Source: Lophium mytilinum
Taxonomy: Eukaryota; Ascomycota; Dothideomycetes; Mytilinidiales; Mytilinidiaceae
DNA length: 64,000 nt
Assembly: GCA_010093605.1 (NCBI GenBank)
Contig: MU004187.1
Coordinates: 191,383-255,382 of the forward strand
Direction of reading: 5' to 3'
Each line of letters begins with the position of its first letter. The first letter of the stretch is position 1. Under the pieces are notes generated by a model. That model did no database searches. It was not told the origin of the DNA and saw nothing but the letters and a program-made list of their open reading frames with translations. Below are positions 4,656 to 39,517 of the stretch, piece after piece. A program made the position numbers and the translations under genes.

Positions 4656-4779
4656 AACCTACACCCGCATCACCGGGCTACAGCGCCCCGCCATCTTGGC
4701 AACTCCAGCCGACCCACTTAAACTTTTGCTTTCGCTGCGGCTTCAAACTACAACACGCATATCAACCAATACCTCGACA

Positions 4780-12041: not shown

Positions 12042-14176
12042 ATGGCTCCTAAGAGAAAGGCCAGAAGCGACGAAGACGAAAATCCAATTGAGCACTACTA
12101 CCAGAGCCTGCCTGCTTCGAAGTCTCGGAAGACAAAAGGCGAGACGTCGGCATCGTCCCGTGCTCTACATGAGTTATCGCCCAAGGTCTATAACTCCCGG
12201 CTTGCTATTCAACAGGCTAGCTGCTACGGCAACAAAATCTTAGACCTGGAAGAGCCACCTACAACGTCTAGCAACCAGCTCGGCGTCACAGCTCGGGAAC
12301 CGCCCAGGCTAAATGCAAATGTCTCTACTCTCGAGGTTCAACGGACGGAGGAAGCTCATTACGGTCAAAGCGAAGCAAACTTCATTCAGCACGTTATAGC
12401 CAACCCTGGTCGGGATACAGCGTCCACCGCATCCAGCACAACACCGACCACGGAATCTCTCATAGCTACTCATTCACGCGGTGTTGCATCGGACACTGGC
12501 CATTCCGCACTCGATCCACAGGCTATTGGTGCGGAATCCCAGATTCGAGCACGAGTACCCGGAGATCTCCCAGCCTTTGGCTCCCACTTCGCGGATAGTG
12601 GCGCGGCAGACCAATGGCGAGCGGCCAATGTCGTGAGAATACCATCTATCGACCCTGACGAGGATCCAACGCTCGAATCAGTTCATGCAGAATCACTAAA
12701 GTGGGTTGAGCTGATGTACAAAATGATAACCAATCGAGAAAATATCGGAGACAACATCAAGAGCGACACGTACAAGAAGTATGAACGCCTTGCGCGCATA
12801 TCATCTGAGAATACAGAGGCAGCCTGCCATTACGTTATGGTAAGTCTCCCTTCCACCAACATAGGAAAGAGCACGAGGAGCTAACGATTCAATAGCGGGA
12901 AGTATTTACTGTTTGTCACTTAGGGTTCTTGCTGGGGGATCCAAACATGGACATGGCTAAGCCACGGAAAGGCAAGAAAGACGGATGGTCTCCGACGGAG
13001 AATCCTCACGAGTTTGAAAAGATTGCAGACGATGAACTCCAATGCTTTATGCGGATGATAAAGATCTGTTACGCGCTGAAGGTATGTAGGCACATGCTGC
13101 TACTCTTGCACATTGTCTTCTTTGCATGCTAACTTTGTGTTCAGCACGAGAAGACCATTTGCGCTGAGGTCCTGAGTGGAGGATTTGGCGACAGACTCGT
13201 AAGGCAATTTGTCAACGCACCTATCGAATGGCGTCGTGTACGTTCTTCCTTCCCATAACTGATATCACAAAGTGGCATACTTTGCTAATCACTGATGTAG
13301 AGGAAAGGCAACAACCGTCATGGCAACGACGGAAAAGCAGAGAAATCAGTTCAACGAGCAGAAAAGCGCATAGAACAAAAGCGCGCTGCAGAACAAGCAA
13401 AGAAGCTTGCAGCTGCCTCAGGTCAGGGGGCCACTAATGTTGACACCGATGTCACTTCTACGAAGAAGAATGCCAGCGATGCGAGCAAGGCACGTGCATC
13501 GAAGAAGCTTGAGCCGCCAATGAACAGCATAGTCAAAGAGGCATTCGCTCTTGGGATCACGATTCCGGACCTATACGTCGGACTTCTGATTGATGAAGAG
13601 GAGGAGGAAGAGGAGCAGCATGTGCCACTACAATCTCCAGCGACTGCTTCAACTCAGCCTCTATGGTGGCTCGGCGAAGCGATTGAGTACAGTTTCGTTG
13701 ACAACGTTGGCCCATCCGACACTCACCAACCTGAACCTACTCCAGAGGCTTCGAACCAACAACCGGCCGCACCAAAGAAGCGGGCGAGGAGATCCGCAGT
13801 GGTGTCAGACCCTCCTAAGCGGAGGGCAAAAGAATCTAAGACTCCAGGGCAAGAACCTGCTGCTCCAGACACACTTCTGGAGATGCCAGCCCAGCAAGCT
13901 CTCCCCAGCTCTACCGAGAAGTATACTGTTCCTTACAGCTATCAGACCCAGTGGCAGATGGGATCTCCACGAAGCCTCCAGTCGGCGGAAGTATCTTTCG
14001 ATCACCAGCTACTTCCTATCGCGGGCTACCAGAACCAGTTACAGCCTGGGCCATATGACCAATTCCCACCTGCTAGAAACTATCAAGTTCAACCGCCATT
14101 CTCTCCCGCAGAACCCACAGAGCAACAGCTCCTGGATGCTCACGGTCAAGCACAGGTCGAGGAATGCGATCCTTAG
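12042..14176 (+). CDS. FamA: unrecognised nuclear-type protein, founder of a three-copy local family
   Basis: I do not recognise this protein. Four exons (12042-12839, 12896-13081, 13145-13237, 13301-14176) joined at phase-0 introns of 56, 63 and 63 nt give 650 residues. A lysine-rich start (MAPKRKARSDEDE) resembles a nuclear localisation signal, and an RALHELS motif follows. The core runs from about residue 180 to 365 and contains FADSGAADQWRAANVVRIPS, CFMRMIKICYALK and FVNAPIEWRRR. Next come a basic Lys/Ala-rich helix, the motif EAFALGITIPDLYVGLL, an acidic run, and a Pro/Gln-rich disordered tail. FamB and FamC (minus strand, 33-39.5 kb) share core, motifs and order. After the TAG the same frame stays open for 35 codons (14177-14281). 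A regulatory nuclear role is inference only. Confidence 0.75.
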
Positions 14177-14284
14177 ATACAAGGAATTGATACCACTGTC
14201 CGCGTTGACTCCAACGATTGGCCGAGGCACGGTATTTCGAGCACGTGGATGGAGCCATTCTGGTTCGACCCAAATAACGCGTGA

Positions 14285-15494
14285 TGTTTCAACGGAGCAA
14301 GGTCCAGGGATGGGTCAGAAAGGCGCTACTGACACTCGATCTTGATTTTCTTTGGTGAGCGAAATTAAGACTCTTTCATACGATTGCGGGAGTTTCGATC
14401 ATACGGGAGTATTTGTATAAGAAAAGATACCTAGGGTTAGAGTGTGTCTTGGCCACATGGGGTTGATGAGACCCTCGACTGCCTTATTCTACATCTACCT
14501 ATGTCTCTAATAAAAGTGCTTATAATGAATGAAATTGGTCTGCCTACGCTCCTATTCTATTGTCTCGCAGTACAACGAATTGCTGGAAATAATCCACTTT
14601 GAACTCGCCAGCCGATGAACACACCACACTGATATATAATTATAATAGATGTGTGGTCAAAGGTTGACTTTATGCAAGGCTGGCGCGTGATATAGCCAAC
14701 ACTAAGACTTATCCGGCTTAGTCTGTGCCCAACCGCGTACCTTGCAGCGCACCCACCTCCTTTCTCCAGGCTTTTTCGTCGATCCCTCACTCTCCAAAGC
14801 AATCCCTCCCAGTGCATATCCTCATTTTATTCTCACGGTTGAAACCGGTTTCTCCGCCTGCCCGAATTTTGTTGGGCAGCCTTGCTGAGATGTCACCGTC
14901 TTCCACGCAGGATTTTTCACGTCGACCTCGAAATTAGCGCCTTTTAGAAACTTATGTACTCGTAGTATCTTACCAAACGCCCAACAGGCGCCCACTGATA
15001 GTCGATGGCACAAGGAAAGGCGCATGCGTTCACTCATCCGGAGCAAACCTTCGCATCGCCATAATTATGTGGGGTTGTTCCAGCGCCCTGGCTGATTGAA
15101 CGCCGATCATAGCGGCCCTATTTCCAAAAGGCCCCTAGTCAAGAGCAGAAATGTGAAGAGCTTGCTCAACTAGGATGATCATCCCTAGATATTGTTACCC
15201 GAAGAATAGAGACTGGGATATACGAAAAGGTTAACCAAAATAAGGTGGCCAACCTTACCTGCCGCCGTGATCGGCCATTATGTGCATCTATATAGGTTTA
15301 ATAAAGGGGGGTGTCAGCACCAGCCCACAAGACTACATAACCATGTATATCCGCGATGGAATGCGCCGAGATAAGTAGTCCTCTAAAACCTCACTTTCGT
15401 TCCTGTTGCTCCCCGAAATAGTCACCTACAGTCTCTACTTATCATCCTCGTCTATCTTTTTAATCGCGACCTTTCTTTTGCACAACTTGAAGAC
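14285..15494. other. Intergenic, no gene seen
   Basis: This is the 3' flank of FamA and 5' flank of the next gene. Open frames here are short and show no motif. Confidence 0.55.
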
Positions 15495-16685
15495 ATGGGA
15501 ATCGGCGACCAAACCGCCCTCCAGTGGGTATTCCCTCCTGGAAATGACCATGAAACTAGCGACGTCGCAGCGAATTTTGGTCCTGTATATGTTCAAGACT
15601 CGATTAAAATCGAGTATACTCCGGCGGACCAGCCCGCTCAGATCGTATTAGCGTGCGGTTTTAGCGGCGATGCCCAAGGTCAGTACGTATCAACAATACA
15701 GCTCTATGACGCCTGGAACATCATAGTTGACTTTGATCTAGCATCTGTTATCGAAACTAGAAGTGCCTCCAAGTCGCCATACTTCTGGAATCTGCTCAAG
15801 CCCGCTGGAAACGGAAATGGCGCATGCCATTTCGCATTCTCTTCAGCATCAGCAGGGAATGGAGATTACTGGGTATACATGTCCGCTAAATCTGACCACA
15901 TCACTGTCTGGAGCGATCTCTCTGTGGCTACTGTTGGTACTGCTGCAACAGCTCTGACGCATCCAAGTCAGACTTCATCGGCGGTTGCAAGCAGTGCAGC
16001 ATCTACTACTTCGTCGACACTCTTGGTCGCTGCCCAAGCGGCGGTATCTTCGAATAGCAGGCCGACAACAATCGTCACAAGTACAACACATTCTTCCATC
16101 ACCAGGTTAGCACTAGATACATCCAGACCATCAGCTTCGGAAGCTTCAGAATTGGCACTAGCAACAGTCACACCTGCTGCGTCAAGTGGTTCAGCCTCGA
16201 CCGCAGCACCCACCACGGCAGACAAGCCCTCTGCAAATCACACAGCTCTTGGCATCGGTGTGACTGCCGCGGTCCTCGCCATCATAGCCTTCGTACTCGG
16301 TCTATTCTTGTTTTTCAAAAAGCGAGGCAGGGATAACTTCATATCCCTACCTGACGAGCCTCTTCCCGACACAAAAGCTACAATATCACGACCTCTGGCC
16401 ACGAAAAACGTCGGATACGGAATTGAGATGGTACCCCAAGAAAAGAGCTGGATGTATGATCGATATACGCAAGGGGCGCAGCGGGTAGGAGACAACGCGC
16501 CCCCGAAGGCTGTTGTAGCGCCGGAGAGTAACGTAGTCTCGAAAAATCCCTACTCAGCGGCTATGATGTATCAAGAGAAACCATACCCACAACTTCCTGA
16601 GTCGGGAGGACAGCCGCGATCAGCGCCAGCACCACCGCCAAAAGATGCGTCGGAAATGCCAGAACAACCCGCGCAGCCGTTTTGA
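15495..16685 (+). CDS. Ser/Thr-rich single-pass membrane protein
   Basis: The 396-residue product has a compact N-terminal domain of about 145 residues (QWVFPPGND...VYVQDSIKIEYTP) with two cysteines. A Ser/Thr/Ala-rich stretch (about 146-248) typical of an O-glycosylated wall-proximal stalk follows. One transmembrane helix lies at about 251-275 (ALGIGVTAAVLAIIAFVLGL), with FFKKRGR as stop-transfer, and then a Pro-rich cytoplasmic tail of about 120 residues. The layout is that of fungal cell-surface sensor-like proteins, but no WSC or Mid2 signature is visible and the function is unknown. No signal peptide is encoded at this start. A hydrophobic stretch just upstream is in another frame. Confidence 0.75.
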   Translation: MGIGDQTALQWVFPPGNDHETSDVAANFGPVYVQDSIKIEYTPADQPAQIVLACGFSGDAQGQYVSTIQLYDAWNIIVDFDLASVIETRSASKSPYFWNLLKPAGNGNGACHFAFSSASAGNGDYWVYMSAKSDHITVWSDLSVATVGTAATALTHPSQTSSAVASSAASTTSSTLLVAAQAAVSSNSRPTTIVTSTTHSSITRLALDTSRPSASEASELALATVTPAASSGSASTAAPTTADKPSANHTALGIGVTAAVLAIIAFVLGLFLFFKKRGRDNFISLPDEPLPDTKATISRPLATKNVGYGIEMVPQEKSWMYDRYTQGAQRVGDNAPPKAVVAPESNVVSKNPYSAAMMYQEKPYPQLPESGGQPRSAPAPPPKDASEMPEQPAQPF

Positions 16686-17467
16686 GGGCATCGAAGCGAG
16701 TTGACGTAATATGAGAAGCGAATTTACGGTGAAAAGAGATCCTGATCATTGTGGCGGGTTGGATGTTTATTGTGATACCTCTTTCTCTACTGTCGGTAAT
16801 GTTTAAACCTCGTTATAGCGTAGACGTCTTCACTCTCAAACGATCTATGAGGTCGAGCAAATCGCTAGTTCGCAGCGGCGGTAATTCTATTGTAGATGCA
16901 CTAGTCATTGATGGGACGGGCAGCACGTGCATGACTCGTGCAACACCGGCTTCATGGCGGGGTCCCCGCATCTTACCTCCCACAACTCAACGCCATGATA
17001 TCTTGCATATTTCCTCGTTTGCTATATTCTCCAAACTCTAATAGACCCGCGTTCACACAAGAAGACTTACCTTCCCCGCGCACGATACAAGATCAACGCT
17101 GGCATTATGTTATCGGTCTTCGGCCCCTCCCAATCCTTGGCTTTGTCCCCAATCCACGCTATAAGCTACGCTTTACCAGTTTCGATACAATAAGCCCTAG
17201 TATTGGAGGCCTCCAAGCCAAAAGCAGTCGATGACATGACGGAATGGCTGCTATACACACCGATACCCCACGTACTACTCCACTTCTCATGCGGCTCTGT
17301 GCCTTGGAACATGGCAATTAAGAACCCGATTCTTCAAATCCTTATCATACCTCTAGCTCTTCTGTGATTCTCCAGATCACAATCGACGTCCTATAACATT
17401 TGATTAAGGCCCTGGAGGTGATATTCTGTCGCTAGCTATCGTCACGACTAGTGGAAGAGTTCACATC
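16686..17467. other. Intergenic, no gene seen
   Basis: About 780 bp separate two plus-strand genes. No conserved motif or RNA gene was recognised. Confidence 0.55.
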
Positions 17468-19525
17468 ATGGTCTTCCAAGGCTTAAGGCTATCTCTCCTG
17501 CCACTTCTCTTTTCTTCATTCGTGGGATCCGATTCTATCTCGTTTGATGTCAACTCATATGGCAATGATGATCCCACGCCCTTCCAGACGTATCTTTCGA
17601 ACCAAGACGTGAAGCCACCGGAGCTTCTTGTGACGAAGAATTCTTCTGGACTTTCTGACGGCTTTGTTTTCATCGGCGTAGATGGAAAACCGACCTCAGG
17701 CCAGAACAATCCTGTCATCTATGGTCAGAAATACGCGTACGCTAAATCGAACATCACCTAATAGTTCTCCAGAAATGTCAAACAAAAGGCTCGGCTCTCT
17801 CATCTGGACAGGCAACTACACCGAACCCTTTGATTTCAAAACGCAAATGTATAAGGGGAAGCCACATCTGACAATGTGGGTAGGGGAACTCCTCAATGGT
17901 AAAGCTAAGCTGTGAGCCAAGGTAGAAGATTGACTGACTGAATTATGAGGCTATGGACACGGATCTTACTACATCCTTAATCAATCCTATTCAGAAGTCG
18001 CGCATTTCTCGCCCGTCGGATATCCTGATCTTGGAGACCTTCACGAGTTCACTATTACCAAGGATGATACCGCTTTAGTAACTACCTACGTCGCCAAGCC
18101 ATGGGACCTGACCGAGTTTGGTGGCCCGGCAGATGGCTGGATTTTTGAAGGTCTTTTCCAAGAGATTCATATCGAAACGAACGTAAGCTTGGGGGTCCGA
18201 ATGTTTCTTCTATCACTCGACTAAGTGACTTACAGCAACTCATCTTCCAATGGAATTCCACAAGTCACGTGGGGTTGAACGAAACCTACAATGAACTATC
18301 TGGCACTGGCTCCGAAGGCTCTCCATTCGACTGGTTCCACATCAACTCCGTCGAAAAGGACGCGAACGGAGACTATCTTGTCTCTGGCAGGGTCATGGAT
18401 TGCCTGTATAAGATTTCCGGTAAAGACGGAAGCATCATTTGGCGGCTCCATGGGAAGCAATCAGATTTCGAAGTTGAAGATGCTGCAAATTTCGCGTTCC
18501 AGCATGACGCTCGTTGGGTTGATGATGTAAAGCAAGATCAAATTACTATCTTTGACAACGGCCCTACTGATACCGTCGGATACTCTCGGGGACTTCTACT
18601 CGCTGTCGACCAGACTGCGAAGACAGTCCGACTCATGCGGGAGTTCACCAATGGGGTAAAGACGTTTGCCCAGTTTGAAGGAAGCTTACAGGCCATTGAT
18701 CCTGGCAACGAGAACACGAACTACTTCCTGGGCTTTGGTGCTCAACCTTTCTTTTCCGAGTTGAACTCTGACGGAGAAATCCTATTAGACGTCCAGTTCG
18801 GCAAAACCAATGCCGTAAACTCCTACAGAGCTTACAGACTCCCTTGGGTGGGAATGCCCCTTACCAATCCCGACATATACTATAATCTCGATGCAAAGAA
18901 GGTCGCTATATCGTGGAACGGCGCAACTGAGGTTGAGCAATGGGTGAGATTCTCTCATGTCTACAAGAAAAAGCGTCCTAGCTTACGCTTCTAGACTATC
19001 TACACATCCTCAGATCTCCAAACCTCCGCCTGGCGGGTCCTTAAAACTGTCGACCGCACCGGCTTTGAAACCTCAGTCGATCTCTCAGATACCTCACCCG
19101 CAACCTACGTCCGCGCCAAAGCAGTCGACGTAAACGGCCAGCCGCTAGGATGGACAGACGCTGCAGATGGAAAATCCCTGTTTCCGGCCAAAACTCCAGA
19201 TGCCGCGGAGTCTAGTAGCTCTATTGTGGTCAGCTCCTCTACGATATCGTCGATGAACAGCTCCTCTACGATGCTGTCGATGAACAGCACGTCAGCGAGT
19301 ATAATCATTATTATGAGCACGAATAGCACATCTGCGCGTATGACTATGACGAGCTCAACAGTTACAAAGATTTTTTCTGCAACGAGTACCTCAGCGGAAG
19401 TATCGATATCGCCCACCGGGACGGCTGCTGCAGCTTCGCCTACAAAGACTGGGACTGCTTGGAAGGCGGAGTCACCCAAGGTAGCGATTGTGGTGTTTTT
19501 GGTAGCTTTGGTCGTTGCGCTTTGA
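17468..19525 (+). CDS. Secreted, GPI-anchored arylsulfotransferase (ASST)-like protein
   Basis: Five exons (17468-17736, 17789-17898, 17950-18182, 18236-18943, 18995-19525) give 616 residues with consistent phases. A signal peptide (MVFQGLRLSLLPLLFSSFVG) precedes the ASST-type beta-propeller. Recognisable family landmarks are DVKPPELLVTKNSS, GSLIWTGNY, NGYGHGSYYILNQSY, DWFHINSVEKDANGDYLVS and NFAFQHDARWVDD. In bacteria ASST moves sulfate between aryl donors; the activity of fungal members is not established. The C-terminus is Ser/Thr-rich, contains a near-perfect 27-nt tandem repeat at about 19230-19285, and ends in a hydrophobic tail (VAIVVFLVALVVAL) preceded by small residues, as expected of a GPI attachment signal. 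The cell-surface location is inferred from these two ends. Confidence 0.87.
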
Positions 19526-19680
19526 GTAATGAGATTGATGTGTGATAGACCTTAAGAAATGAGATTTGAGCAAGGCTGTGCATAAGGGCATGTCCACCTC
19601 AACACGGTTTCACAGCTTCAGGCCCTGGTTTGAGCCCCCCTGGACTCAACTTGCATCAAATCAGCGTATCTTTCCATGCA

Positions 19681-22377
19681 CTATATGATCGTGAGCGTAG
19701 AATCTTCAACGCCCCCAAAGAAACCAAGAACGTCAGTCGAACATCCAATTCGCTCAAAAGATTCTGACTCTTCACGCGGTCGCCACAGCAAAAGGGCAAA
19801 GAGTCCGACGAATCTTACGTCCGCAACCCTGAACAAGAACAGAGGACGCGTGCGCTTGTCCAATCCATCCACAACCCACTCAACATCCATCGAAAGAGTG
19901 GCGAGAGATGACGTCTCTGTCTTTACATGGTTGCCTTGGGGGCCTGCACTCCATACCTGCACCAACCCGCCGCTCACTACTAAGCTGGCAGATTCCAGCT
20001 GGCCAAACTCGTCGCCCAATCTGTGCGGTGTCACTATGCAGCGAATAATCTGGCAGAGCATCTTCGTATGCTCGAATTCGTAATAAGTTACTTGCCCATC
20101 GATGCTCGCCCAAGACCAAGTCGGTGCCCGCCACAGCGGCAGTTGCTGTCGTTGAGTTTCAGACGCGTGACGTTGCCACAGCATGTCCTCAACCAGCGAA
20201 TGTTCCCACAGGCCCGCGTAGTACTTTCCAAGGTACTCGAATTGTTTTGCCAGCCCTGTGAGCGCGATAAGACGGTCGCTTGAAAATGTGAAATCCAGAC
20301 CAGAATACTCTTCCACGATCTTGTGCCACCGGGTAATGAGTAAGTCTCGGGCAAAGCGCGTGTCAATGGAAGCCCTGAGGCCTGACATGGACTCTGCTTT
20401 TGACATATCAACTCGCGCAAAGCGCGTGTCAATGGAAGCCTTGAGGCCTGACATGGACTCTGCTTTTGACATATCAGCTCGCGCTACGCGTTGTGCGAAC
20501 GCGTGATTTTTTTTAGGATGTGGTACTCGGGAAATATTGGGTTCAAAGCCGCACTCACAGCGCAACATTGTCGCGCATTCCCATATGAGTTCGTCTGGCC
20601 CGAAATGCAAAATTCGTGGAGATAGGAGCCGCTCTTGGTATACCCAGCCTCGTCTTAATAGCGGCGAGTGCGGCACTGGATTTTCTACTAAGCTGGAGGG
20701 GACTAGAGGAACTAGGAGGTTGTGCAAAGGCCGTAACTGGGGTCTAAGGCGCACCTCCCACTTGTCAACACCGGCATTGCGTGGCCGAAGCGTGAGACTT
20801 TGGGCGACGGGAGTGGGTTTCCAAAACAGCCCATCGGCGTCACTTCTGAGCACTGGGTATGTATTCTGGCCTTCTGCGCCGGATGCGAACAGCGTGAGCG
20901 TAGATCTAGCGAATATAGACCACATTTCAACAGACTCCTTTTGCCAGTCTTCCTCATCATCCTGGACAATGCAGATGGAGTCTATCCAGATATAGCGAAT
21001 CCCCAGTCTGCGGGTGAAGACTATGGCATCTTGAAATCTTTGGGTAAGATCGGACCAGGGGATATTCTGCAGGTACTCCTGGAGTGTTGACTGAGTTGTT
21101 CGCGTCATCTCCGAGACTGGAAGCCATCGGTGGCTTAAGCAGACATAAGGTGCAGCTTCGCCACTGGTCACAAGTAAGCGGACTTTTGGCAGTTGGTCCT
21201 TTGGGTTATCGAGACTAATGTCGGCGCTGGCTACACCAACGTCAAGTACGCGAGTGGGCAATGGGGATCCATGTGACTCATGGGTTCCAGAGCAATCGGG
21301 GTGATATTCTTGGCACTCGCGCAAACGTGCTTGGGCCCAGAGTAGTGATTCTGTGGAGGAAGTATCTCCCGAAACCATTGTGGTTGGATGATGCATACTA
21401 GGCCATGGCATCGGCATTGCTATAAAAGTCTTTAGCAAGTCAGGCAGACATATAGGGGATATATGAGGTAGAATGGTGTTACAGACATGAAAGCAACGCA
21501 AAGCGTTTCGCTGATTTACGGAACTGACTCGATAATGGAATCGCAATTTCAATAGCTTACCTCCTACACTGTCCAAATGCCATTGTGATGAGGCATACAT
21601 ACCATCCCCTAGATGACCTGTAAATTCCAAACGTACACCCCTGTGCTGACCTTTAGTGATCCGTACTTCCGTAACCTCTAAGACTATCCCGGATGCGGCT
21701 ATTTCATCTACCGGTTTTCCTGGCGAATCGTCTCTATAGAACCCTCTCAAAACCTCTATCTGGACTACATTCCTCATGGCGAGGATGCCGTCGACGAACA
21801 GACAACATGCTTGGCAAGACCCGCGGTCCGACGAGAGTGTGAGGTCGTGGAAAGAAACTTCTTTGAATCGGTCGTATGGACCCTCATATAAGAGGATATC
21901 TTGGCATATTTCACATGACAGCTTCGAATTTGCCTGATCTAATACAGAAGGCTTGCTGCCATCTTCCAAAAGACTGCTGTTACGGGCAGACGTTGATCGG
22001 TTTTTGGGTCGCCTCAGCCATTCCTTTATCTTTTTGAAGCCGCGAGGGGCTACTTGCTTGGCCTCCTCATGGTCAGCTGCTCGTCGCAAGGGAGTCTCTA
22101 TGATAGATTCAGGATCAGAGATATCCTCAGTAGAGAATGTCCCAATGCTTGTCCAGTAACGCGGCATCGTAACATTCAGGAACGTGATAAGGTTGTGAAA
22201 GGTCGATTTGCGATTCAAATTACAAGTCCATCTTAATAACTCTAATGAGAAATGGGATGGAAGTTTAATGCGGGGAATATAAGCGCCTACATACCCAGGG
22301 GCGGACAGTGAACTGAGCTTTGACCACGTGACCCCGTTGTTGGGGCGTTTGTTATGATGCACTTTTCGTAGCGACAT
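19681..22377 (-). CDS. HET-domain (heterokaryon incompatibility) protein
   Basis: The 898-residue single-exon frame carries a full HET domain at about residues 405-555. It opens APYVCLSHRW and continues with FTRRLGIRYIWIDSICIVQD and EVMWSIFARSTLTLFAS-like sequence. The C-terminal flank has RRGWVYQERLLSPRILHFG, ELIWEC and APTWSWASIDG, as in most HET proteins. A cysteine-containing N-terminal region (CEICQDIL, CQACCLF) is also usual. HET proteins mediate non-self recognition and programmed cell death after hyphal fusion. A 22-residue unit is tandemly duplicated between the two C-terminal blocks. A start at 22167 (MPRYWTSIGTF) is equally possible and would remove 70 poorly conserved residues. 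The gene is head-to-head with the next gene, so the promoter region is short. Confidence 0.9.
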   Translation of the reverse strand: MSLRKVHHNKRPNNGVTWSKLSSLSAPGYVGAYIPRIKLPSHFSLELLRWTCNLNRKSTFHNLITFLNVTMPRYWTSIGTFSTEDISDPESIIETPLRRAADHEEAKQVAPRGFKKIKEWLRRPKNRSTSARNSSLLEDGSKPSVLDQANSKLSCEICQDILLYEGPYDRFKEVSFHDLTLSSDRGSCQACCLFVDGILAMRNVVQIEVLRGFYRDDSPGKPVDEIAASGIVLEVTEVRITKGQHRGVRLEFTGHLGDGMYASSQWHLDSVGGKLLKLRFHYRVSSVNQRNALRCFHVCNTILPHISPICLPDLLKTFIAMPMPWPSMHHPTTMVSGDTSSTESLLWAQARLRECQEYHPDCSGTHESHGSPLPTRVLDVGVASADISLDNPKDQLPKVRLLVTSGEAAPYVCLSHRWLPVSEMTRTTQSTLQEYLQNIPWSDLTQRFQDAIVFTRRLGIRYIWIDSICIVQDDEEDWQKESVEMWSIFARSTLTLFASGAEGQNTYPVLRSDADGLFWKPTPVAQSLTLRPRNAGVDKWEVRLRPQLRPLHNLLVPLVPSSLVENPVPHSPLLRRGWVYQERLLSPRILHFGPDELIWECATMLRCECGFEPNISRVPHPKKNHAFAQRVARADMSKAESMSGLKASIDTRFARVDMSKAESMSGLRASIDTRFARDLLITRWHKIVEEYSGLDFTFSSDRLIALTGLAKQFEYLGKYYAGLWEHSLVEDMLWQRHASETQRQQLPLWRAPTWSWASIDGQVTYYEFEHTKMLCQIIRCIVTPHRLGDEFGQLESASLVVSGGLVQVWSAGPQGNHVKTETSSLATLSMDVEWVVDGLDKRTRPLFLFRVADVRFVGLFALLLWRPREESESFERIGCSTDVLGFFGGVEDSTLTII
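20351..20482 (-). repeat. 66-nt tandem duplication within the HET gene
   Basis: The units 20351-20416 and 20417-20482 differ at about two of 66 positions. They encode two copies of a 22-residue segment around DMSKAESMSGL, and the frame is kept. The near identity points to a recent duplication or ongoing gene conversion. Confidence 0.93.
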
Positions 22378-22471
22378 CCCAGCACCTTTTCCCTTACCAC
22401 CATATCAACCCACCGAACTCTCCACACGCCGTACCACCACTATCGCGCGCCCCTCACTGCAATTGATCCTC

Positions 22472-24607: not shown

Positions 24608-25289
24608 TACTTTCCAATTGTGCTTCACTAACGTGCGCGAAGAAGATACCCAAGTTCCAAAAGTCCGCTACCTGGTCGCATAGGCGATACGAGTATCAAC
24701 AGCGGTAATTGGGATGGGTATTTTGGCCCGGTCCGTGGTGTAGTGTCGGTCCCTTTCATATCTCGGCTAGCGTTTCCAGTCCGTTGGGTTGTCGTTCGCA
24801 GGGGTTCAGAATGGGATGGTTTAGCGGCATTGCTGGGAGTTAGGGGGTGTTTCCTTTCCCTGCAGATGCTCGCAGCTTTCTTTGCTGGGAAAGGGAGATA
24901 TCTCTATGTGGTTAGATTGATAGTATGGTGATTGTGCTTCAGTATAATTTAAATCCTGTGTTAAAATCTCTCCTGAGTTGTAGTATAGCCGTGCGAGACC
25001 TTTGGTATTTGATGCCTTCGAGAGCTTTTCGCCACTATCAGCCTGCCACACATATACGCCGTACCAAATTCGTCAGCAGTTGGAGTTTCAAACAACATCC
25101 CATTCTTTGCTACCATGCAACCATGAAAATGTGTATTTGATTCGCTTCGTCAGCCCGGGTACATGCAAAGCCTACCATCAGAGTGGTCCCCCAGTCCAAA
25201 TCCTGACCTTGAGACGGGCCTCTACCCAGCTTTTCATCTCCAGCCTTGACACCGCCACACCTAGCCACCAGCACAGAATTATCAATCCT
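24608..25289. other. Convergent 3' region, no gene seen
   Basis: This lies between the stop codons of the coiled-coil gene and RPS5. No additional coding exon was recognised. Confidence 0.6.
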
Positions 25290-31700: not shown

Positions 31701-32461
31701 CACCAAAAAACCTCCGTCGCACCGTCGCCGAGTTGCGCCGCATGAATTCGGACGCGGAGAGGGGCGGTCGTGGGGAACGGCGGTACCTACGCTTAGGGCG
31801 CGAGGCGAGTCTCCCGGGTTTGAGCGCGGTTGGCGATGATAGTCTATGGGATGATAGTGTGCTGGAGGCAGAAAGGCAAATGTCAGACGTGCATGAAAAC
31901 TGGGAAGACGCGATCATCACTGAAGAAGCAGATACTGAGACTGGTGGCGAGGGTGACCAGACTTTCATTGATATCGGGGACTCGAAAGGCGATGTCCAAG
32001 CCAACGGAATGATCAACGGTCTTCCAGAACCTGACTTTGATCTTGATGCTAGTATTCTCTCGAAGTCATTCTACGGCAACGACGCCCAGGAAAATCGGTC
32101 TAGCTCCGTTTGGGAAGACGGCGAGCGCTTCTGGCACTCAACGCCACCGCGCCCACGCGAGGCGCAGACTCCTACCCCGTCGCCATCGCCGGTAGCGAAG
32201 CCGGAACCACTTCGAGTAAACGTAACCCAGAAGCGTGCGAGTAGGAAGTCGTTTGTTGTAAGGCCTGACGATGGGGATACTGATGCTGGCGCCGATGCCG
32301 GGGTCACTGGTGGAAGCAAGAAGAGGGTGTGTAGAGTGAGGGGAAGTGCCAACGAAGTAAACGCGTCGAATGGGTTCGCCAGGGTGAGTATACAGATCCA
32401 GCCGCCGAGTGAGAGGGGGACGCCGGGGAGTTTGTATGATGCGCAGGGGTTTTTGAGGTAG
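28742..32461 (+). CDS. Large single-pass membrane protein with disordered Ser/Pro-rich tail
   Basis: The single-exon 1239-residue product starts at an ATG in good context (CGACATGG). One transmembrane helix sits near the N-terminus at about residues 18-46 (ALIGILTGVGLAILGLLVGL). A basic segment (RAVKTHKRLLADLEQRG) follows it. More than 1,100 residues of low-complexity Ser/Pro/Arg-rich sequence follow, with many RRxS-like sites that could be phosphorylated, for example KRHS at about 395-410. The end is more ordered and acidic (LDASILSKSFYGNDAQENRS). Such proteins are frequent in Pezizomycotina and have no known function. The type I-like topology, with a short outside end and a large cytoplasmic part, is inferred from the positive residues after the helix. 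Confidence 0.75.
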   Translation: MAPLDIRDPFGGHRELGTGALIGILTGVGLAILGLLVGLTWLLVRAVKTHKRLLADLEQRGVNIARPRMAESSHTLITRPRAVLRRNSFLPFNSQSGWGALPSHETIPNPVPPPPLPPQSVTTLRSTNHDKRVSRLSWPFPGRRKSGRALQLKRIRVAPLSAIVESPKASPLVPILNGPIQGRSSASVGTKSRPSSDQSLLKHHPALRSNWEGNYAGASYHKDDSNSQATDPQAITLAKRYGPNRSKSVAAIPVNDSSNPPTSFDRPRLHQRSMSLGSQASGLAPDAPMPPLPLEVARIRSEAKRKSLLARSPSRFSVSSFESAGSSILATQSSPIVKQNNLHLQKVTKRHSVCLGPRPPRDTLTLHGRSPRFSQSSIKSNVAHYSVTTTPSSKRHSTASNKRHSVVEGMTSRENSGNLRTIANSRSSDSARWKRASLASPASSTLTVRSMTTPRRHSGITVTAFGSPQERRKTSALRDVSGNQGPPTRQLSQASTQASSTRSSNGNPFQWDPAPLLSGKPSALKGSPSARKGHRRQNCVRISLAPTILGPPCRSPSPCPLIMNDIQEESPDTSQKAAPHSVGIGFSNTRSLPRPPSASVFAPDLKLNPSFRTSLTPSSPTLSLTTYRMQIAESPHLDQYKNHWNSTRDSSRLSTGSISSIPAFPSPCHDIGSIRSIAEPPPTFAFSRPSNEYVQEIRMPDSPVAPSSAFDSAIPDSTSLQRMPEQVEKYNPDAPHLGFSKAAISSPTQFYSLFTPASDDHFSSLCSGKKRGRTPSDSPPCSPKTVRPHAFLPISATRPPVVLDSAEQPSLGDGLLLDTIDPALLSRDIFTSPASGISRSLLNSPNCNTTHSARGWDQSPVSTILDPLLENAFLSQPRTWSTPPKLAPLTYVRSHARSQSALQPPAFRPQSPLNFNLNLSLDHPAASSNEAPESPTSAYSSPSATAPSSPRPAHASLPGALPSKPTRLSQTTIPTLSPTPMGPRASPPKNLRRTVAELRRMNSDAERGGRGERRYLRLGREASLPGLSAVGDDSLWDDSVLEAERQMSDVHENWEDAIITEEADTETGGEGDQTFIDIGDSKGDVQANGMINGLPEPDFDLDASILSKSFYGNDAQENRSSSVWEDGERFWHSTPPRPREAQTPTPSPSPVAKPEPLRVNVTQKRASRKSFVVRPDDGDTDAGADAGVTGGSKKRVCRVRGSANEVNASNGFARVSIQIQPPSERGTPGSLYDAQGFLR

Positions 32462-33059
32462 TCGAAGGGAATATGGTCGCTGATAGGGGGTGTGTTCATC
32501 ACAGTCATTTAGTTTTTCCTCAGTCGCTTAATCGTAATGCCTTGGTCTTAAGACAATTTTTGGCAAAGTGACTTGGTTACTGGCCTTGTTTCCTTTGTTG
32601 GTTTAGATAGCGCGTGCCTAGCCAACGCTCAGAGCCCTCATCCATGTGAAGGGTTGAGGGCACCAGAATGATCATAGGCCCGCATCACATACCTGACTAG
32701 CATCTTAGGAAATTTTAGTTCATCTACGTCTTTCCATCCACCCAAGTTCACCATCCTGAACGAAATAGATATACAAGAGTCAAGGTATACCCATGACTGT
32801 TCAGTGCTATGTACACCCCTCGCTCGGCGGCAAACTCCTATCACACACCTATGCCGTTCTCTATAGTATTATCAAAGATCGACATCTGGAGTTGCAACCC
32901 CTTATCAAGTCAGCCGCTTTCTTGAAATGCCACCCACAAGAATTGAGACACATCATGGTATGTCCGAATACCGTCTCTGTAAGTCCGGTTGTTTAAGTTT
33001 CGCAAAAAGTTCATTCCCTGCTTACCATGATTTCGCAAGAGAGCGATTCATTGAGCACT
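32462..33059. other. Convergent 3' region, no gene seen
   Basis: About 600 bp lie between the stops of two convergent genes. No motif was recognised. Confidence 0.55.
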
Positions 33060-35198
33060 CTAGAGCTCCTCTTCCATATCATATAGATTTGAGGATCCAA
33101 AATCACCCAGATCATTGAAGATGGAGTAGTCTGGAGCCGCCGTAGGTTCCCTGAGAAACTCATTCCAGAAATCCGGATTTACCCCTGCGGAAGTTTCAGG
33201 AAGGTAGGCGTTATCCTGGATCTCATCGGAGGGAGCTACGCTGTTCTCGGGAAACCAAATGTAGTCAACACACCCAGGAGGAGTATCCCATCCAGCGGCT
33301 TCGCTAGTATTGGCCACTGGGTCAACGGGATGAGCAATGACTGGAGAATATGGTTGGTTTAGGCCTAATGCTGGCTGAATGTTGGTTGTCTGAATGCTCG
33401 CTGGCTGAATGTTGGTTGCTTGAATGCTCGCCGGCTGAATATTTGCGAGATAAGTGAGGGGAGACACAGCTGGAGCAGCCGATTGGTGCTGGGCCTTCCC
33501 ATGTGGAATGTTACGAGTTGCCGACGGTGAATCAATGTCGATAGGCGAGTCCCGACGAAGGATTGGTGCATTGCCTATGCTCACATCGTTCTCGAAGGGT
33601 GTAGATGATTGAGGATGCAACTTCTTCGCCCTCGGTTTCGGCGGCGGCTCTGAGGCCTTCTGCGTCTGCGGAGCAAGAATGGTAGGTGTTGCAAGGTTTT
33701 CCTCAGCCTGTGCGTTCATTCCAACTGGCTGGGCTGCGATTGTTGGTATGATTGTTGCCACCGAGTTTCCGAAATGGTCCACATTGTGGGTTGATGTGAC
33801 TATCGAAGCTGCACCAGAGCCAAGTCCATTTCGTGGGACCAGTTGCAGCGTCGGATTGTTTGTATTGGGATGAACCAGTGGTGCTGCAGTTTGCAGGGGA
33901 GGTAACATTGTAGACTGTGCCTGTGTGGGATGTCCTATGTATGCTGCAAATGAGCGAATCCCAAGAGCTGCAGCTTCTCCATACTCTTGAGTCATATCAG
34001 GCTCAACATAAGTTTGACGCGGTTTATCCTCCTTGGGCGCCTTGCGATTGTTGTTGTTTTTTCGATTGCTTTCTTTGCGGCGGCGCCATTCGATTGGTGT
34101 ATTGACAAACTGCTTGATCACTTTATCGCCGGTGTCTCCCTTAAGAACATCCTCGCAGACCATCTTTTCCTTCTTCAGCGCGTAGTATATTTACAAGACT
34201 CGGTCTGCACAGGATAATTCTCGGTCCGGCTTACTGCCTAATCTGGAGGTCCCGCACGGTTTGTCCAATGTCAGGTCAAGGGTCTTGTCAGCGAGAAAGA
34301 ATCCCTCTTTACAGAGAGTCAACATCTCTTCGACAAGCTCGTGACACGCAAGCTGAAGTTCCTCTACAGTAAAGTAAGGTTTCTGGACGAAATGTTCGCG
34401 GCCCTTGCTGGTGGGATTGTCCTTAACATCCGATTGATCAGTCATACCCTGGTAGAAGAGGTTGACGATCTTCAATCTATCTGCTTCTATCTCAACGATT
34501 GTCGGATCATCTGTACAAGGTATCCACGGTAGTCTGCAAATATTATCTCGACGCCATCTCCGAGCCTCGTCGAGATCCGCGAAACGGTTGGCAAAAGGAG
34601 GGAAAACGCTTGCCGCAGTTTTAGAAGCTAGGGTAGTTAGAGAGATTGGTGCGTGCTGGATAGCTGGGTCGGTGTGAGCGGCAGGGTCTGTCCGGGAACT
34701 TGCGGTGGTTTGGAACGTTCCGGTCGGTATGGCTCCCTGGACCTCCGTCGAGTCGAGTCCATGATGCATAGACGCAACCATATTTGAGTTTGTGGCGGTA
34801 TGGGACGAGGCTGCTGTATTCAGCATTTGACTCGGTCCAAGGCGCTGGGTGTGCAGATAGCCAGGATCCATCTGCTCATGGTAAACCTGAGACTGATCTT
34901 TCAATTCTGTTCGGTACCCTGTCCGTCCTTCCTCGTGCTCGTCTACTTCATTCTCGTTCGTAGAATGAGCCGATGAGAATCTGGTGTTATATAGCTGTGA
35001 GATGTTTTTTTCGATCGGCTCCGCCTGGGTAGCGTGCGCCCTGATTGAGGTCGGAATGTTGATCGATATTGCTTGGAGGGCTCTCCCTTGGGACGGTATT
35101 TCCATCCTCGTACCCTGGTCACTAAGTCGGGACTTTTTGCGAACTTGCTCGCTGGGAAGCAATTCCTCGACCTCTCCAAAGCTGCGCTTAGGCGCCAT
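33060..35198 (-). CDS. FamB: intronless paralogue of FamA/FamC with an in-frame stop
   Basis: This is an unrecognised family member of about 712 codons in one frame (MAPKRSFGEVEE start, GRALQAIS motif). Its core aligns with FamA: FADLDEARRWRRDNICRLPW, ACHELVEEMLTLCKEGFF, YYALKKEKMVCEDVL and FVNTPIEWRRRKESNRK. It also has the AALGI motif (EAAALGIRSFAAYIG). None of the three coding introns of FamA and FamC is present; the sequence runs straight through all three sites. A TAA at 34193-34191 interrupts the frame at RVL/IYYALK, where FamA has Lys. Downstream the frame is open for 376 codons, holds conserved sequence and ends in an acidic tail (YDMEEEL). A repeat based on TNIQPASIQ lies at 33365-33450. 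It could be a pseudogene, a truncated protein, or read through. Confidence 0.65.
33365..33450 (-). repeat. In-frame tandem repeat in FamB
   Basis: Three degenerate copies of a unit encoding about 9-10 residues (NIQPASIQ-type) lie in tandem in the disordered tail of FamB. FamA and FamC lack the repeat. Confidence 0.8.
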
Positions 35199-35210
35199 GG
35201 CGTCGGTCTG

Positions 35211-35375
35211 CTAACATCTAACATCTCAGGTTAGAATATGATGAGGAGGTGGTGTGAATATAATTGGGGTTAAGACAAAAGGGTATATCGGGTCCAAAAG
35301 AGAACAGGAAGCTCTGAGTGGTGTAGGGAAAGAGTGAAGATGTGCCCGAGCTTCGAAACAAGTGGAGCAACTTAC
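35211..35375 (-). other. Probable 5'-leader intron of FamB
   Basis: Reading the minus strand, TCTTG/GTAAGT at 35376-35371 is a consensus donor. A branch-like TTCTAACC precedes the acceptor GATGTTAG/CAGACC at 35211, 13 nt before the ATG. The 165-nt interval is pyrimidine-rich. FamC has a similar arrangement (39716-39518) with a similar post-acceptor sequence (ACCGCG). Confidence 0.55.
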
Positions 35376-35540
35376 CAAGAGGGACTGATCTGTTTTAGGC
35401 GCTGGAATCTATGAGAGCGAGCGTAACGAGTCTTGAAGAGATTGGTTGTGGTGTTGGTGGAAGAGCTTGGTGTGAAGAGTTTGGTGGGGGGGTTGGTGGG
35501 AGGAGGTTGATGGGAAGGTTACGCGTAGGAGTTGGTGATC

Positions 35541-35548
35541 CTTTTATA
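35541..35548 (-). promoter_or_regulatory. TATA-like box of FamB
   Basis: The minus strand reads TATAAAAG about 165 bp upstream of the proposed leader-intron donor, followed by a pyrimidine-rich leader. Spacing is compatible with a core promoter. Confidence 0.4.
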
Positions 35549-37294
35549 GTTCAAGTGCAGGCCGCATAAATATCATCTATTAGTGAATCGAAGTAGGCTG
35601 AAGGGCACTGGCGTGCGCGACTGATGCTTCTCTGAGCATTCACGTCCTCGATTCTTCGGGATATATAAAGAGCTTGATTCCATTGTATTCCACAGTATCA
35701 CTCTATGCTGTCATCCACTTACCAACTTCAACGAGTCAGAGAAACTGGCTCGGTCAATTTGCTAGGATCAACCAACTAATGGAAGCTGGTTTCAAGTTGG
35801 GTCGATCAACTTAAAAACATCTCACAGCTAATGGAAATCGGTTTGCGTCTTTGTTTCCAAGTATTTGAGGATAAGTATGAGAGTTCAATGTGCCAAATGA
35901 TGTTGATGATCATCATTTGGAAAAGACGAGCAGCACCAACTAAGAGAGATGAAGAAGAGAATCTTCGAACATGGCGATGAAGTATCCTGAGCTTCGAAAC
36001 AATCAATACCGCAAACTTCGATAGATAATCAGCTAGATCCTATTGAATGGAATCTTAATGCATTGCATCACCCTCTGACCCTCTTGAAGTGATTTTTTCC
36101 CTTGTGTAGTTGGAGCATTAGGCGGCGTTGCTGGATCGAGGGAATCGCAGCCGAGAGGCCGCCGAAAGAGTGAAGGAGATCGATGAGAAAGCAAGCTCAA
36201 AGGCCAGGCTGAGCGCCTCTAAAGGAAATAAAGCTGACTCTTCTATAGATTTGCTGGTTGGTTGCTGTTTGACTGCTGCATCTAGACGTATAGCTTCGAG
36301 GAAGATAAGAAATTTCGCGTCTCCCCTTTGCCTGTTTGTCCTCCAACGAGGTAGCTTCTCTAACTAGATTCAACTGAAATCAAGCCATTGCCTGAAGGAA
36401 CTATCAAGATCTTGAAGCATTAAGATAGCGATAAATTCTATGAGTATCAGCACGTCGTCAATGAAACCAATTCGATGCCCAACTGCTGATTCCTTAAGAT
36501 GTTAACACCTCTTTTCAGCGGCCACTTTCAATCCCGCTGAAAAGATCTGCTGAAAGTGATACTTGAAGCCCACAATGTTTGATCAGGTGACGAAGAGTTT
36601 GCACGACAGCTGACAAGTCTATGTGGGGACAAGCTGACGCGCTCTCTGCTTGCATCTCTCAAACGCATCTCATCTCAAGTTTCGGCCCCTATGGAGCTGC
36701 TAAAGTGTAGCTTTCCGACGCGTATCTTTGCGCCTTGTATCCGTATTCTAGGGCGAAGTGCCGCCTTTGACGCGTCGCAAGATGCTTGCAATACTAGAGG
36801 AGGGTCTCGCAATACCTTGGCGCTGTCCTTCCTGACTGGGCTATGAGAGAAGCAAATGAAGTGTTTAAAAGTCAGCGTGTTTTAGATGGAGAGTGCTGAG
36901 AGAGTGAGCAAGTGCTTAGTGCGGAGATGTTGAGCACGGACCAGATAGCTCCCCTCTGCCTTCAGGGGCCTCGACATCAACACGATCTTTACAGCCATGA
37001 CGTAGTAGTGCTCCGCCATAACCTGAGAATTAAAGTATTAACATGAGGGTTTTTCCTAGTTCTAATCTAAGCTAAGAGGATTTCCGGGAGGTCTCCGTAT
37101 CTGAGTATACAATATAGACATAGACCAGGAGACATCGCCATGTCCTTTTCCAGGGTTTTTAAACAACAATTAAAGAATCACACGCATCGGCACACGTTAT
37201 TGTAAGCAAAAGAGAGATGCAACACGCATGCAACAAAAATCAACAAGAGCCATCCAAGCACCGCAGCTGTAAACTTGCCCAGCTTCTCCAAAGT
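35549..37294. other. Intergenic between FamC and FamB, no gene seen
   Basis: About 1.7 kb between two tandem paralogues carries only short open frames without family motifs. No clear repeat was found by eye. Confidence 0.5.
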
Positions 37295-37477
37295 CTACAA
37301 CTCTTCGAAAAGGGAATCGATGTCCTCTTGGCTCATCACCCTAAATTCCAAAGCACCTTGGGACTGTCCGTCAGAACCCGAGAGCACCTCAGTTTCGAGG
37401 ATCTCTGACGATGGCTCGACAGTCAAAGAAGTTTCATGGGTTGAAATCGACTCTGCGTCTCCCAGCCAGTCATTTTG

Positions 37478-39463
37478 CTAGAATTGGGCATTCCCTGAGA
37501 GCCCAGCGTTGTCCCAAATTTGGAGTGGGGTGAATTGCGTCCCATAAATCGAAGACGGATCGAAAGACGCCTGTTCCGTTTGAGGTAGTAGTTCAGGGAG
37601 TGCATTATATCCAGTCGTGCCGTCCGAAACTGGGGTTAAATTATCTAGCATTGGTCGCGTGGAAGGGCTCAGAGTGAAGTCCGAATCTAGCTCTTCAGCG
37701 AATTGGCCCATCCTTGGAAGGATCATTTCTGGTGTGGTCGTGCCCGAGGTAGTCGGAACCTCGTTGAAGACGGTTTGAACAGATCGGGCTACCGGTTGTC
37801 GGACACCTAGAATGTGACTGCTCGATGAAGCGATGGGACTCGGGGACATTGGTGGCAACATGGTTTGCTCCGCACGCTTCCTAGGTTGCTTCGGTTGCGT
37901 GGTTGGCCTTCTAGCCTTGCCCTTCTTTGGATGCATAGATGGGGTTACGCCTGCGGCTGATGGTGGGGCATTTGCTGGGCCCAGCACCGGTTGCGCACCA
38001 AAGCTTGGAACAATGTGCGATGTGTTCATCTGGGGGCTGGGGATTTCAGTATCTGCATCGCCCCCGGGGGTCGCCACTTCGGGCGTGGCCAATGAAGCAT
38101 CTGGGTGTCCTGCGGAAGCGTCTATTTCCACACGAGGGCGATATGCATCGGGAACTTCAACCCCCAGGACTAGAAGGTTCCGGTAGGCTAGAGGTATATA
38201 TATTCCTAGTGCAGCCGCTGCGAGAGCCACATCGTTAAGCGGAGGCTCCGCTTTTGGTGGCGAATGCGGTATGACGGACGGGTTTGGGAGTACCACTTCC
38301 GTCTTGCCCGCGTTCCTTTGCCTGCCCTTCTCACCCCTTCGCCAGTTTTGGAGGCGGAACTTCTCTTTGTCCTATTGTAGATGTCAACTCATTTTCTTTA
38401 AACATGAACGAGGAGATTTCCGGAACTGACTCACCCGGCGACGAGCTATCGGAGCATTTACGAGTCTCTTCACATTGATATCTCCGCAAACAGCGATCAG
38501 GACCTCATCACAGAGGGTTTTCTCGTGCTAAACACAATATGGGTTAGTATGGAAGAAATAGAAAGACCGTGGCTGCACGTACCTTGAGAGCGTAACAGAT
38601 TTTCAGTAAGCGCATAAAGCAAGTGAGTTCGTTGTCTTTGAACTTCTTGACATCGCCAATTAGGCTCTCGTGTAGGCGACAACCTGTCTCGCACACCTCC
38701 AATGCTTCAAACTGTGTCCGCATTAGCTCTGACTCTTTAAGTCAGGGATTCAGAGAAGACCCACTAAGATTTCAATGGACGCGCCCTCAATGTCTTTTGT
38801 TGAATACTGCTGCATGATGACCATGCGCTTGTATCCCTCGCTGGTGACGGTATCTCTCACAGCAGACAGATCGGTGATATGATTGTAGATAAGTCTGACC
38901 CATGCTTCCATTTGGCCGCGGGCCTGATTGATAGTTACATCCGTTTCAGGTTTCAGGTATGGCTGCTGTCTCCTACTGTCCGCGCGCCAATCGAGACCTA
39001 GGCCAAAATCTTTGAAGTGACCTTGAAAGCCCGGATAGCCTGCTGGTGTTGAGGTTGGGATGGTGGCTACTGTCTCCTCTGGTTCATTTTCTACAACGTA
39101 GGGCTGGTGTTGGCGTGCTCCAAGAAGCTGAGCTTCATCTTGGATCGTCTGCTGGTGTGAGCCGGTCCAACCTCCCTCTACAGTTGCTGTCGTCGGCACT
39201 GTAGACGCGAAGCTGGAGAGTAAATATTCGCTGGCATTTGAGTATCTAGTGTCGGGGGATATAGAACGCTGTGGAGCGCCGTGTGGTCCTTCATGAGTAT
39301 TGACACGCGGCCCTCCTGAACTATTCACTGGTAGATCCTGCAAAGCTCGAAAGGAGTTTTGATTGCTGCCATTCATCTGTTGTGGCGCGGACAGAAGTAT
39401 CTTTTTCCGTTGTGGCTCTGTGCTCGTCTCGTTCTCGTTACCATTCAGCTTTCGCTTCAGCAT
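37478..39463 (-). CDS. FamC: third member of the FamA/FamB family
   Basis: Four exons are inferred: 39463-38765, 38711-38583, 38527-38435 and about 38365-37478, giving about 602 residues. Introns 1-3 fall at exactly the FamA positions, and exon 3 is 93 nt in both genes. The N-terminus is MLKRKLNGNENE with FRALQDLP. Core landmarks are FKDFGLGLDWRADSRRQQPY, ELTCFMRLLKICYALK, HEKTLCDEVL and LVNAPIARRR. The AALGI motif reads AAAALGIYIPLAYRNLLV. To keep the frame, intron 3 must end at the AAAG before 38365 and not at the TAG seven bases upstream. After the TAG (37480-37478) the frame stays open 60 codons to another TAG at 37297-37295, with acidic sequence ending EDIDSLFEEL. Function is unknown. 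Confidence 0.72.
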
Positions 39464-39517
39464 GCTGTCGAGTAGGAGAAAAGAGAGCGGAAGTCCCTGG
39501 CCGGAGCGTTCGCGGTC

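What the first reader, a model, noticed from the sequence alone, without database searches (positions are those of the whole stretch)
12042..39463. A local three-member gene family with no recognised function (FamA, FamB, FamC)
Three genes at 12.0-14.2 (+), 33.1-35.2 (-) and 37.5-39.5 kb (-) share motifs in the same order. These are a basic start, RAL[HQ]x[IL]S/P, a core of about 200 residues with (Y)YALK(H/K)EK and (V)N(A/T)PI-x-x-RR(R), an AALGI-type motif, and a disordered Pro/Gln/Ser tail with an acidic end. I cannot connect the core to any family I know. The lysine-rich ends suggest nuclear proteins. Two members are in tandem, and the third is 20 kb away in opposite orientation. The similarity is seen in the sequence; novelty and nuclear role are inference.
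Basis: partly seen in the sequence, partly recalled or inferred. Interest (0 to 1): 0.75.

Follow-up and report, generated by a model that had tools for sequence, protein, structure and literature searches.

The report
Unnamed fungal nuclear-type protein family
Three related fungal genes in this stretch belong to a family of at least fourteen, nearly all on one chromosome, that share a core matching no catalogued protein domain and look like nuclear proteins, one of them with a DNA-binding SAP motif.

Summary
FamA, FamB and FamC are homologous (BLASTP E 9e-42, 4e-40, 2e-28). The host genome shows that the family is not a local trio: at least 14 members, 13 on the window's contig C7 (5.2% of the assembly) in four clusters, one on C20. 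All 14 share R-x7-L-x3-K-x2-C ... P in an otherwise fast-diverging core. No core reaches a Pfam-A cut-off, and PDB sequence profiles give only chance-level hits. FamG carries an N-terminal SAP domain over the curated cut-off, and NLS-like clusters are fivefold enriched over shuffles, so the nuclear inference gains support. The fold is untested: the one AlphaFold run gave pLDDT 43.6. FamB has an in-frame TAA inside its core. A, C, D and E share three introns absent from the other ten and form one group (94/89). FamA and FamC stop at a TAG followed by a coding-like tail, cause unknown. Best reading: DNA- or chromatin-associated nuclear proteins evolving by duplication and decay along one chromosome. 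A real uncatalogued family, though lineage families of unknown function are a known kind of thing.

The parts
12042..12839 (+). FamA exon 1: basic start, RALHELS, first half of the core
   Evidence: splice site shared with FamC, FamD and FamE
12896..13081 (+). FamA exon 2: core, ends ..MIKICYALK
13145..13237 (+). FamA exon 3: HEKTICAEVL..VNAPIEWRR
13301..14176 (+). FamA exon 4: FALGI motif, disordered-type tail with NLS-like clusters; ends at TAG
14177..14284 (+). In-frame stretch of 35 codons after FamA's TAG, up to and with the next stop; coding-like codon usage, status unknown
   Evidence: similarity to the relatives' tails not significant
34194..35198 (-). FamB 5' part: MAPKRS start, RALQAIS, most of the core, no introns
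34191..34193 (-). In-frame TAA inside FamB's core
33060..34190 (-). FamB 3' part, same frame: YYALKKEK, VNTPIEWRRR, AALGI, tail ending YDMEEEL
38765..39463 (-). FamC exon 1
38583..38711 (-). FamC exon 2
   Evidence: intron 1 placed at the position and phase used in FamA, FamD and FamE
38435..38527 (-). FamC exon 3: HEKTLCDEVL..VNAPIARRR
37478..38371 (-). FamC exon 4: AALGI motif, disordered-type tail; ends at TAG
37295..37477 (-). In-frame stretch of 60 codons after FamC's TAG, up to and with the next stop, acidic end EDIDSLFEEL; coding-like codon usage, status unknown
   Evidence: similarity to the relatives' tails not significant

Best explanation
FamA, FamB and FamC are members of a fast-evolving fungal family of nuclear proteins. 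Each has a probably helical core of about 165-195 residues as cut here, with an invariant R-x7-L-x3-K-x2-C...P signature, which in most members runs into a basic Arg/Lys/Asn-rich stretch. Long, disordered-type arms flank the core and carry nuclear-import-like signals, in most members with an acidic end. Most likely they work at DNA or chromatin: import by the Lys/Arg clusters, the core (with the basic stretch after it, and in FamG a SAP domain) as the nucleic-acid- or chromatin-contacting module, and the acidic tail as a contact surface for other factors. Shown: homology, membership, SAP domain in FamG's first exon, enrichment of NLS-like clusters, acidic ends in 11 of 14. Inferred: nuclear location, helical fold, disorder, DNA or chromatin contact, role of the tail. 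Copies arose by duplication and stayed on one chromosome. Some decay, and FamB, with a stop in its core, is most simply a recent pseudogene or a truncated copy.
For: Homology of the three beyond chance. Twelve of twelve cores recovered by an HMM built from the other eleven, E 1.7e-12 to 1.7e-56, while the best of 1000 shuffles of each core came no lower than 0.0063. Two further members, first seen as weak hits (FamN E 0.0035, FamP E 0.11), scored E 2.4e-18 and 2.5e-9 with an HMM that did not contain them. R, L, K, C and a Pro invariant in 14 of 14. SAP domain E 6.9e-7, 29.2 bits over a cut-off of 23.9, in FamG's first exon; the ORF with FamG's core has no Met ahead of the core. NLS-like clusters 30 against 6.0 +/- 2.4, shuffle maximum 14, with 12 of 14 members having at least one. 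Net basic first 40 residues in 9 of 14 and net acidic last 40 in 11 of 14. 13 of 14 on C7, against a C7 share of 5.2%, while the HET matches listed fall on 22 of 24 contigs.
Against: Only 1 of 14 has a recognisable DNA-binding domain. No member is shown to be expressed, nuclear or DNA-bound. The fold is unknown: AlphaFold pLDDT 43.6, pTM 0.23. FamH, I, J and K have net acidic first 40 residues (K's start is not defined), and FamG, H and I lack an acidic end. FamI and FamN have no NLS-like cluster. Such clusters also occur in RNA-binding, nucleolar and non-nuclear basic proteins. The FamG fusion of SAP and core rests on a predicted intron.
Confidence: 0.5

Rival explanations
1. The window copies are mostly decaying relics of a birth-and-death family with little present function: FamB broken in its core, FamA and FamC shortened at the tail.
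For: In-frame TAA in FamB's core. Coding-like in-frame stretches after the TAG of A and C. Cores of the family only 13-59% identical.
Against: FamA and FamC keep intact cores and 3 GT-AG introns each. FamB keeps one frame over 712 codons, one of them the stop. The genes have no RIP signature.
Confidence: 0.25
2. A domesticated or still mobile element: the core is derived from a transposon or Gag-like protein, and copies spread by transposition.
For: Multi-copy, fast-diverging core with disordered-type flanks; RIP-affected AT-rich DNA at the left end of the window.
Against: No repeats of 20 bases or more flank the window copies: the two found (a 32-base inverted pair inside FamA, a 15-base tandem unit inside FamB's tail) lie within the genes. 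No near-identical copies among the members found. No relative in IMG/VR by one pattern. 13 of 14 on one contig, where transposition would be expected to scatter them. No Pfam transposon domain over a cut-off.
Confidence: 0.08
3. Transcription activators in the strict sense (a special case of the best explanation): core dimerises or binds DNA, acidic-hydrophobic C-terminus activates.
For: Tails such as EDIDSLFEEL, LGDIFDMTL and YDMEEEL resemble acidic activation segments (recalled resemblance). Net acidic ends in 11 of 14. In counts of acid plus W/F/Y/L over 39-residue windows, the best window is at the C-terminus in FamB (tied), and at or near it in FamC (tied) and FamE once the post-stop stretch is added.
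Against: In the same counts the best windows of FamA, C, D, E, F and G as they stand are not at the very end (three windows listed for each of seven members). No known transcription-factor domain.
Confidence: 0.2
4. The TAG codons of FamA and FamC are recoded (readthrough, or A-to-I editing as in some other filamentous ascomycetes), giving long and short forms.
For: Coding-like codon usage after the stop in A (0.053), C (0.016) and also E (0.046), against 0.88 and 0.98 for I and H. Editing of UAG premature stops is known in Fusarium graminearum (PMC11156358, passages read).
Against: The middle A of these stops is not more often in predicted hairpin loops than in 251 background UAG/UAA (39% of background as high for A, 87% for C, 19% for FamB's TAA). 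The tails do not align significantly with those of relatives. Editing was not found in the Aspergillus and Botrytis species tested (same passages). Simple loss by mutation explains the same data.
Confidence: 0.05

Closest known systems
SAP domain (Pfam PF02037) proteins
   Same: FamG carries a SAP domain over the Pfam cut-off at its N-terminus; nuclear-type composition with disordered-type arms.
   Different: No SAP hit in the scans of the other 13 members; the shared core is not SAP.
TPR_Nup160_C (Pfam PF23347)
   Same: Weak hit of FamC at full length (E 0.14) and of one of 12 cores (E 0.011).
   Different: Far below the curated cut-off (11.8 against 27.1 bits) and seen in one member only: treated as chance.
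HET domain genes (Pfam PF06985)
   Same: Large multi-copy family in the same genome; one member lies in the window between FamA and FamB.
   Different: No Pfam HET hit in this family; the HET matches listed fall on 22 of 24 contigs, 6 rows on C7 (a capped list), while this family is nearly confined to C7.

Membership tests
SAP domain proteins (PF02037) | SAP motif of about 35 residues over Pfam's gathering score | tested here: not met
   FamA, FamB and FamC have no SAP hit. FamG has one. So the family is not a SAP family, though one member bears the domain.
Family of FamA/B/C (core with R-x7-L-x3-K-x2-C...P) | Core found by an HMM built without the member, better than all shuffles | tested here: met
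   12 of 12 jackknife tests; N and P scored by an HMM built without them
Any Pfam-A family (24736 models) | Core over a curated cut-off | tested here: not met
   best core E 0.011 (two families, one member each); outside the core only FamG's SAP domain passes
Known fold | Structural match of a confident model | tested here: inconclusive
   pLDDT 43.6, pTM 0.23; no fold search run on so poor a model. Profile against PDB sequences: best E 0.059 and 0.11.
Processed (retro-) pseudogene, for FamB | Introns of the parent gene precisely missing, parent intron-bearing | tested here: not met
   The three core introns are missing not only in FamB but in 10 of 14 members, and FamB groups with FamG, whose core has none either (85/82), not inside A/C/D/E (94/89). 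Poly-A remains and target-site duplications were not looked for.
Transposable element | Terminal repeats, target-site duplication or near-identical copies | tested here: not met
   repeats of 20 bases or more in 10500-16000 and 32000-41000: none flanking; highest core identity 59%. Short target-site duplications were not tested.
Secreted effector | N-terminal signal peptide | not tested
   No predictor on hand; the N-termini of A, B and C are charged (MAPKRK.., MAPKRS.., MLKRK..), which argues against one.

The most novel reading that the evidence does not exclude
The core is an undescribed DNA- or chromatin-binding domain, marked by R-x7-L-x3-K-x2-C...P. It founds a fungal nuclear regulator family that has radiated by duplication along a single chromosome, with the paralogues held there by rearrangement within that chromosome.
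Probability: 0.25. Interest if true: 0.6.

Novelty: new member of a known kind. Interest (0 to 1): 0.4.

Why it matters
Multi-copy families of unknown fold make up much of the unexplained part of fungal genomes. This one has a defined core, a short invariant signature that makes it easy to search for, and one member tied to a known DNA-binding motif, so its function is testable. The near-confinement of 14 diverged copies to one contig would fit mesosynteny (gene content kept per chromosome while order is scrambled; Hane et al. 2011, PMC3219968, abstract read) and could serve as a paralogue-level case of it.

Tried and rejected
Fold: one AlphaFold job (FamB core read through, with FamA and FamC exon 1 and exon 3 rows; exon 2 rows were left out because they misaligned) gave pLDDT 43.6; no fold search was run on it. 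Splicing around FamB's TAA: 40 in-frame GT-AG options of 40-250 bases, all removing 16-83 residues, none with both a YAG acceptor and a donor of 4 of 6; for FamC's TAG 9 options with the same outcome; for FamA's TAG 13 options, one with YAG and donor 4 of 6 but no branch-site motif in place. FamB as a retrocopy: rejected because intron absence is shared by 10 of 14 members. RIP as cause of the stops: the genes have composite RIP indices of -0.56 to -0.73, and only 1-6 kb of the window is positive. Homology of the post-stop tails of A and C to the relatives' tails: none reached p < 0.05 by shuffling (there FamE's post-stop stretch matched FamA's tail at p 0.026 and FamI's matched FamC's at p 0.048, as chance would give among 40 comparisons). 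A-to-I editing in hairpin loops: no enrichment. Relatives in IMG/VR (one pattern) and in GTDB genomes (FamB's 3' half only): none. Block duplication of the B-C pair to the G-D pair: considered because B groups with G and C with D, but gene order does not fit a simple copy or inversion. Literature: looked for such a family and gave nothing that describes it (listings and abstract openings only); some searches were for background. No claim is made that it is not in print.

Full report
Setting. The window is contig C7:191383-255382 of an unnamed 43.2 Mb assembly in 24 contigs. HET-domain genes (152 matches reported), short GT-AG introns and an AT-rich, RIP-like left end (1-6 kb) point to a filamentous ascomycete; the species was not identified.

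The three genes. Gene models were built from the sequence, without transcripts. FamA: exons 12042-12839, 12896-13081, 13145-13237, 13301-14176 (+), 650 aa. FamC: exons 38765-39463, 38583-38711, 38435-38527, 37478-38371 (-), 604 aa. FamB: 35198-33060 (-), one frame with a single in-frame TAA at 34191-34193. BLASTP gave E 9.3e-42 (A-B), 4.1e-40 (A-C) and 2.0e-28 (B-C), and local alignment scores were 410, 373 and 290 against a maximum of 70 in 200 shuffles for each pair.

The wider family. Searching the host genome with members in turn and with an HMM of twelve cores gives at least 14 members: A, B, C (C7, 203.4-230.8 kb); G, D (435.9-449.6 kb); J, K, P, I, N, M (832.2-861.5 kb); F, E (1689.8-1700.4 kb); and H on C20 at 557.7-559.8 kb. 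B is broken by a stop. Each of the twelve cores was recovered by an HMM built from the other eleven at E 1.7e-12 (M) to 1.7e-56 (E), while the best of 1000 shuffles of each core came no lower than 0.0063. FamN and FamP, first seen as weak hits of FamK (E 0.0035 and 0.11), scored E 2.4e-18 and 2.5e-9 with the twelve-core HMM, which did not contain them. One more weak hit, C20:587798 (E 0.03), was not found by the HMM and is left out. Counts are lower bounds, since the genome search scores only the best candidates. Core identity runs from 13 to 59%. Five positions are the same in 14 of 14: R, L, K and C in R-x7-L-x3-K-x2-C, and a later Pro.

No known domain. hmmscan against Pfam-A found no core over any cut-off in A, B and C (A and C spliced, B as two halves), D, E, F and G (D and E as exon ORFs), twelve cores, or H, I, J, K, M, N and P as ORFs. 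The best core hits were E 0.011 for TPR_Nup160_C and for GBP_repeat, one member each; D's exon ORFs gave E 0.04 (Rrn6_K-rich) and 0.15 (Transformer), both below cut-off. Profiles against PDB sequences gave only chance-level hits, the best being designed helix bundles and a CaM kinase. The one AlphaFold model, limited by its rule to window sequence, was all-helical but unusable (pLDDT 43.6, pTM 0.23).

Nuclear evidence. FamG's first exon carries a SAP domain (E 6.9e-7, 29.2 bits against a cut-off of 23.9; also one of 11 hits of the genome-wide SAP search). It joins the core exon by a 187-base predicted intron in frame, and the core ORF has no Met ahead of the core, so the fusion is likely but unproven. 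NLS-like clusters number 30 over the 14 proteins, against 6.0 +/- 2.4 (maximum 14) in 300 composition-keeping shuffles; 12 of 14 have at least one (FamB is counted there over both halves, FamK from its stop-to-stop ORF). The first 40 residues are net basic in 9 of 14 and the last 40 net acidic in 11 of 14. SUMO-interaction-like patterns were also in excess (9 against 2.5, 0 of 300 shuffles as high), but that pattern was written after seeing some of the sequences, and some matches (FamF's) lie inside the core, so it is only a lead.

Evolution. In a tree of 14 cores, A pairs with E (95/94), C with D (100/99) and B with G (85/82); A, C, D and E form one group (94/89, just short of the tool's strict mark), and deeper forks are unresolved with long branches. 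These four share three phase-0 introns at the same sites, 12 of 12 with GT-AG ends, while the ORFs of the other ten run without introns across the core. One gain on that stem, or one loss on the other side, explains this; the tree is not rooted well enough to choose. FamB's lack of introns is thus most simply inherited, not a sign of retroposition. 13 of 14 genes lie on C7, which is 5.2% of the assembly (binomial 2.6e-16 for genes, which are not independent; 3.5e-5 for 4 of 5 clusters). Duplication followed by rearrangement within the chromosome, as in mesosynteny (PMC3219968, abstract read), is a natural cause but was not tested.

Stops. FamB's TAA cuts the core. FamA and FamC end at TAG, yet the in-frame stretches beyond (35 and 60 codons) have coding-like codon usage: 5.3% and 1.6% of stop-free intergenic windows score as high; FamE's post-stop 48 codons 4.6%; FamI and FamH 88% and 98% (the intergenic pool overlapped part of FamE's stretch). 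B, D, F and G were not scored, their in-frame extensions being 3 to 24 codons; J, K, M, N and P were not looked at. Against this, the stretches of A and C do not align significantly with relatives' tails, the stops are not preferentially in hairpin loops, and RIP indices of the genes are normal. Shortening by mutation is the simplest cause. Recoding is kept only as an outside chance.

Conclusion. A real, uncatalogued, multi-copy fungal family, most likely nuclear and DNA- or chromatin-associated. Whether the core is a new fold is undecided.

Noticed in passing
window 14177-14284 (+) and 37295-37477 (-): In-frame, coding-like stretches directly after the TAG stops of FamA and FamC; FamE has one too (L016:3866-4009), its TAA lying within a GTAAGG donor-like site.
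   Followed up: partly
window 1-6000: AT-rich, strongly RIP-like DNA (GC 28.5% and 25.5% in the first two 2-kb blocks; composite RIP index 1.45, 1.70 and 0.53 per 2 kb) next to normal genic DNA.
   Followed up: no
window 19681-22404 (-): HET-domain gene (Pfam PF06985, E 5e-25) between FamA and FamB; the genome search reports 152 HET matches, a capped count.
   Followed up: no
L013:1377-1710 (C7:435.9 kb): SAP exon fused by a predicted intron to the FamG core.
   Followed up: yes
C7:832.2-861.5 kb (L043, L056, L057, L062, L072, L073): A second cluster of six highly diverged members (J, K, P, I, N, M).
   Followed up: partly
FamA, FamC, FamD, FamE core: Three phase-0 introns at shared sites found only in these four; possible multiple intron gain on one stem, or one joint loss elsewhere.
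   Followed up: partly
L056 (FamJ), L042 (FamH), L013 (FamG): SUMO-interaction-like hydrophobic-acidic patches (VVIEISDDEDE, YVISDSD, PIVLGADDEE); pattern defined after the fact.
   Followed up: partly
window 33370-33429 (-): Short tandem repeat with a 15-base start spacing inside FamB's tail.
   Followed up: no
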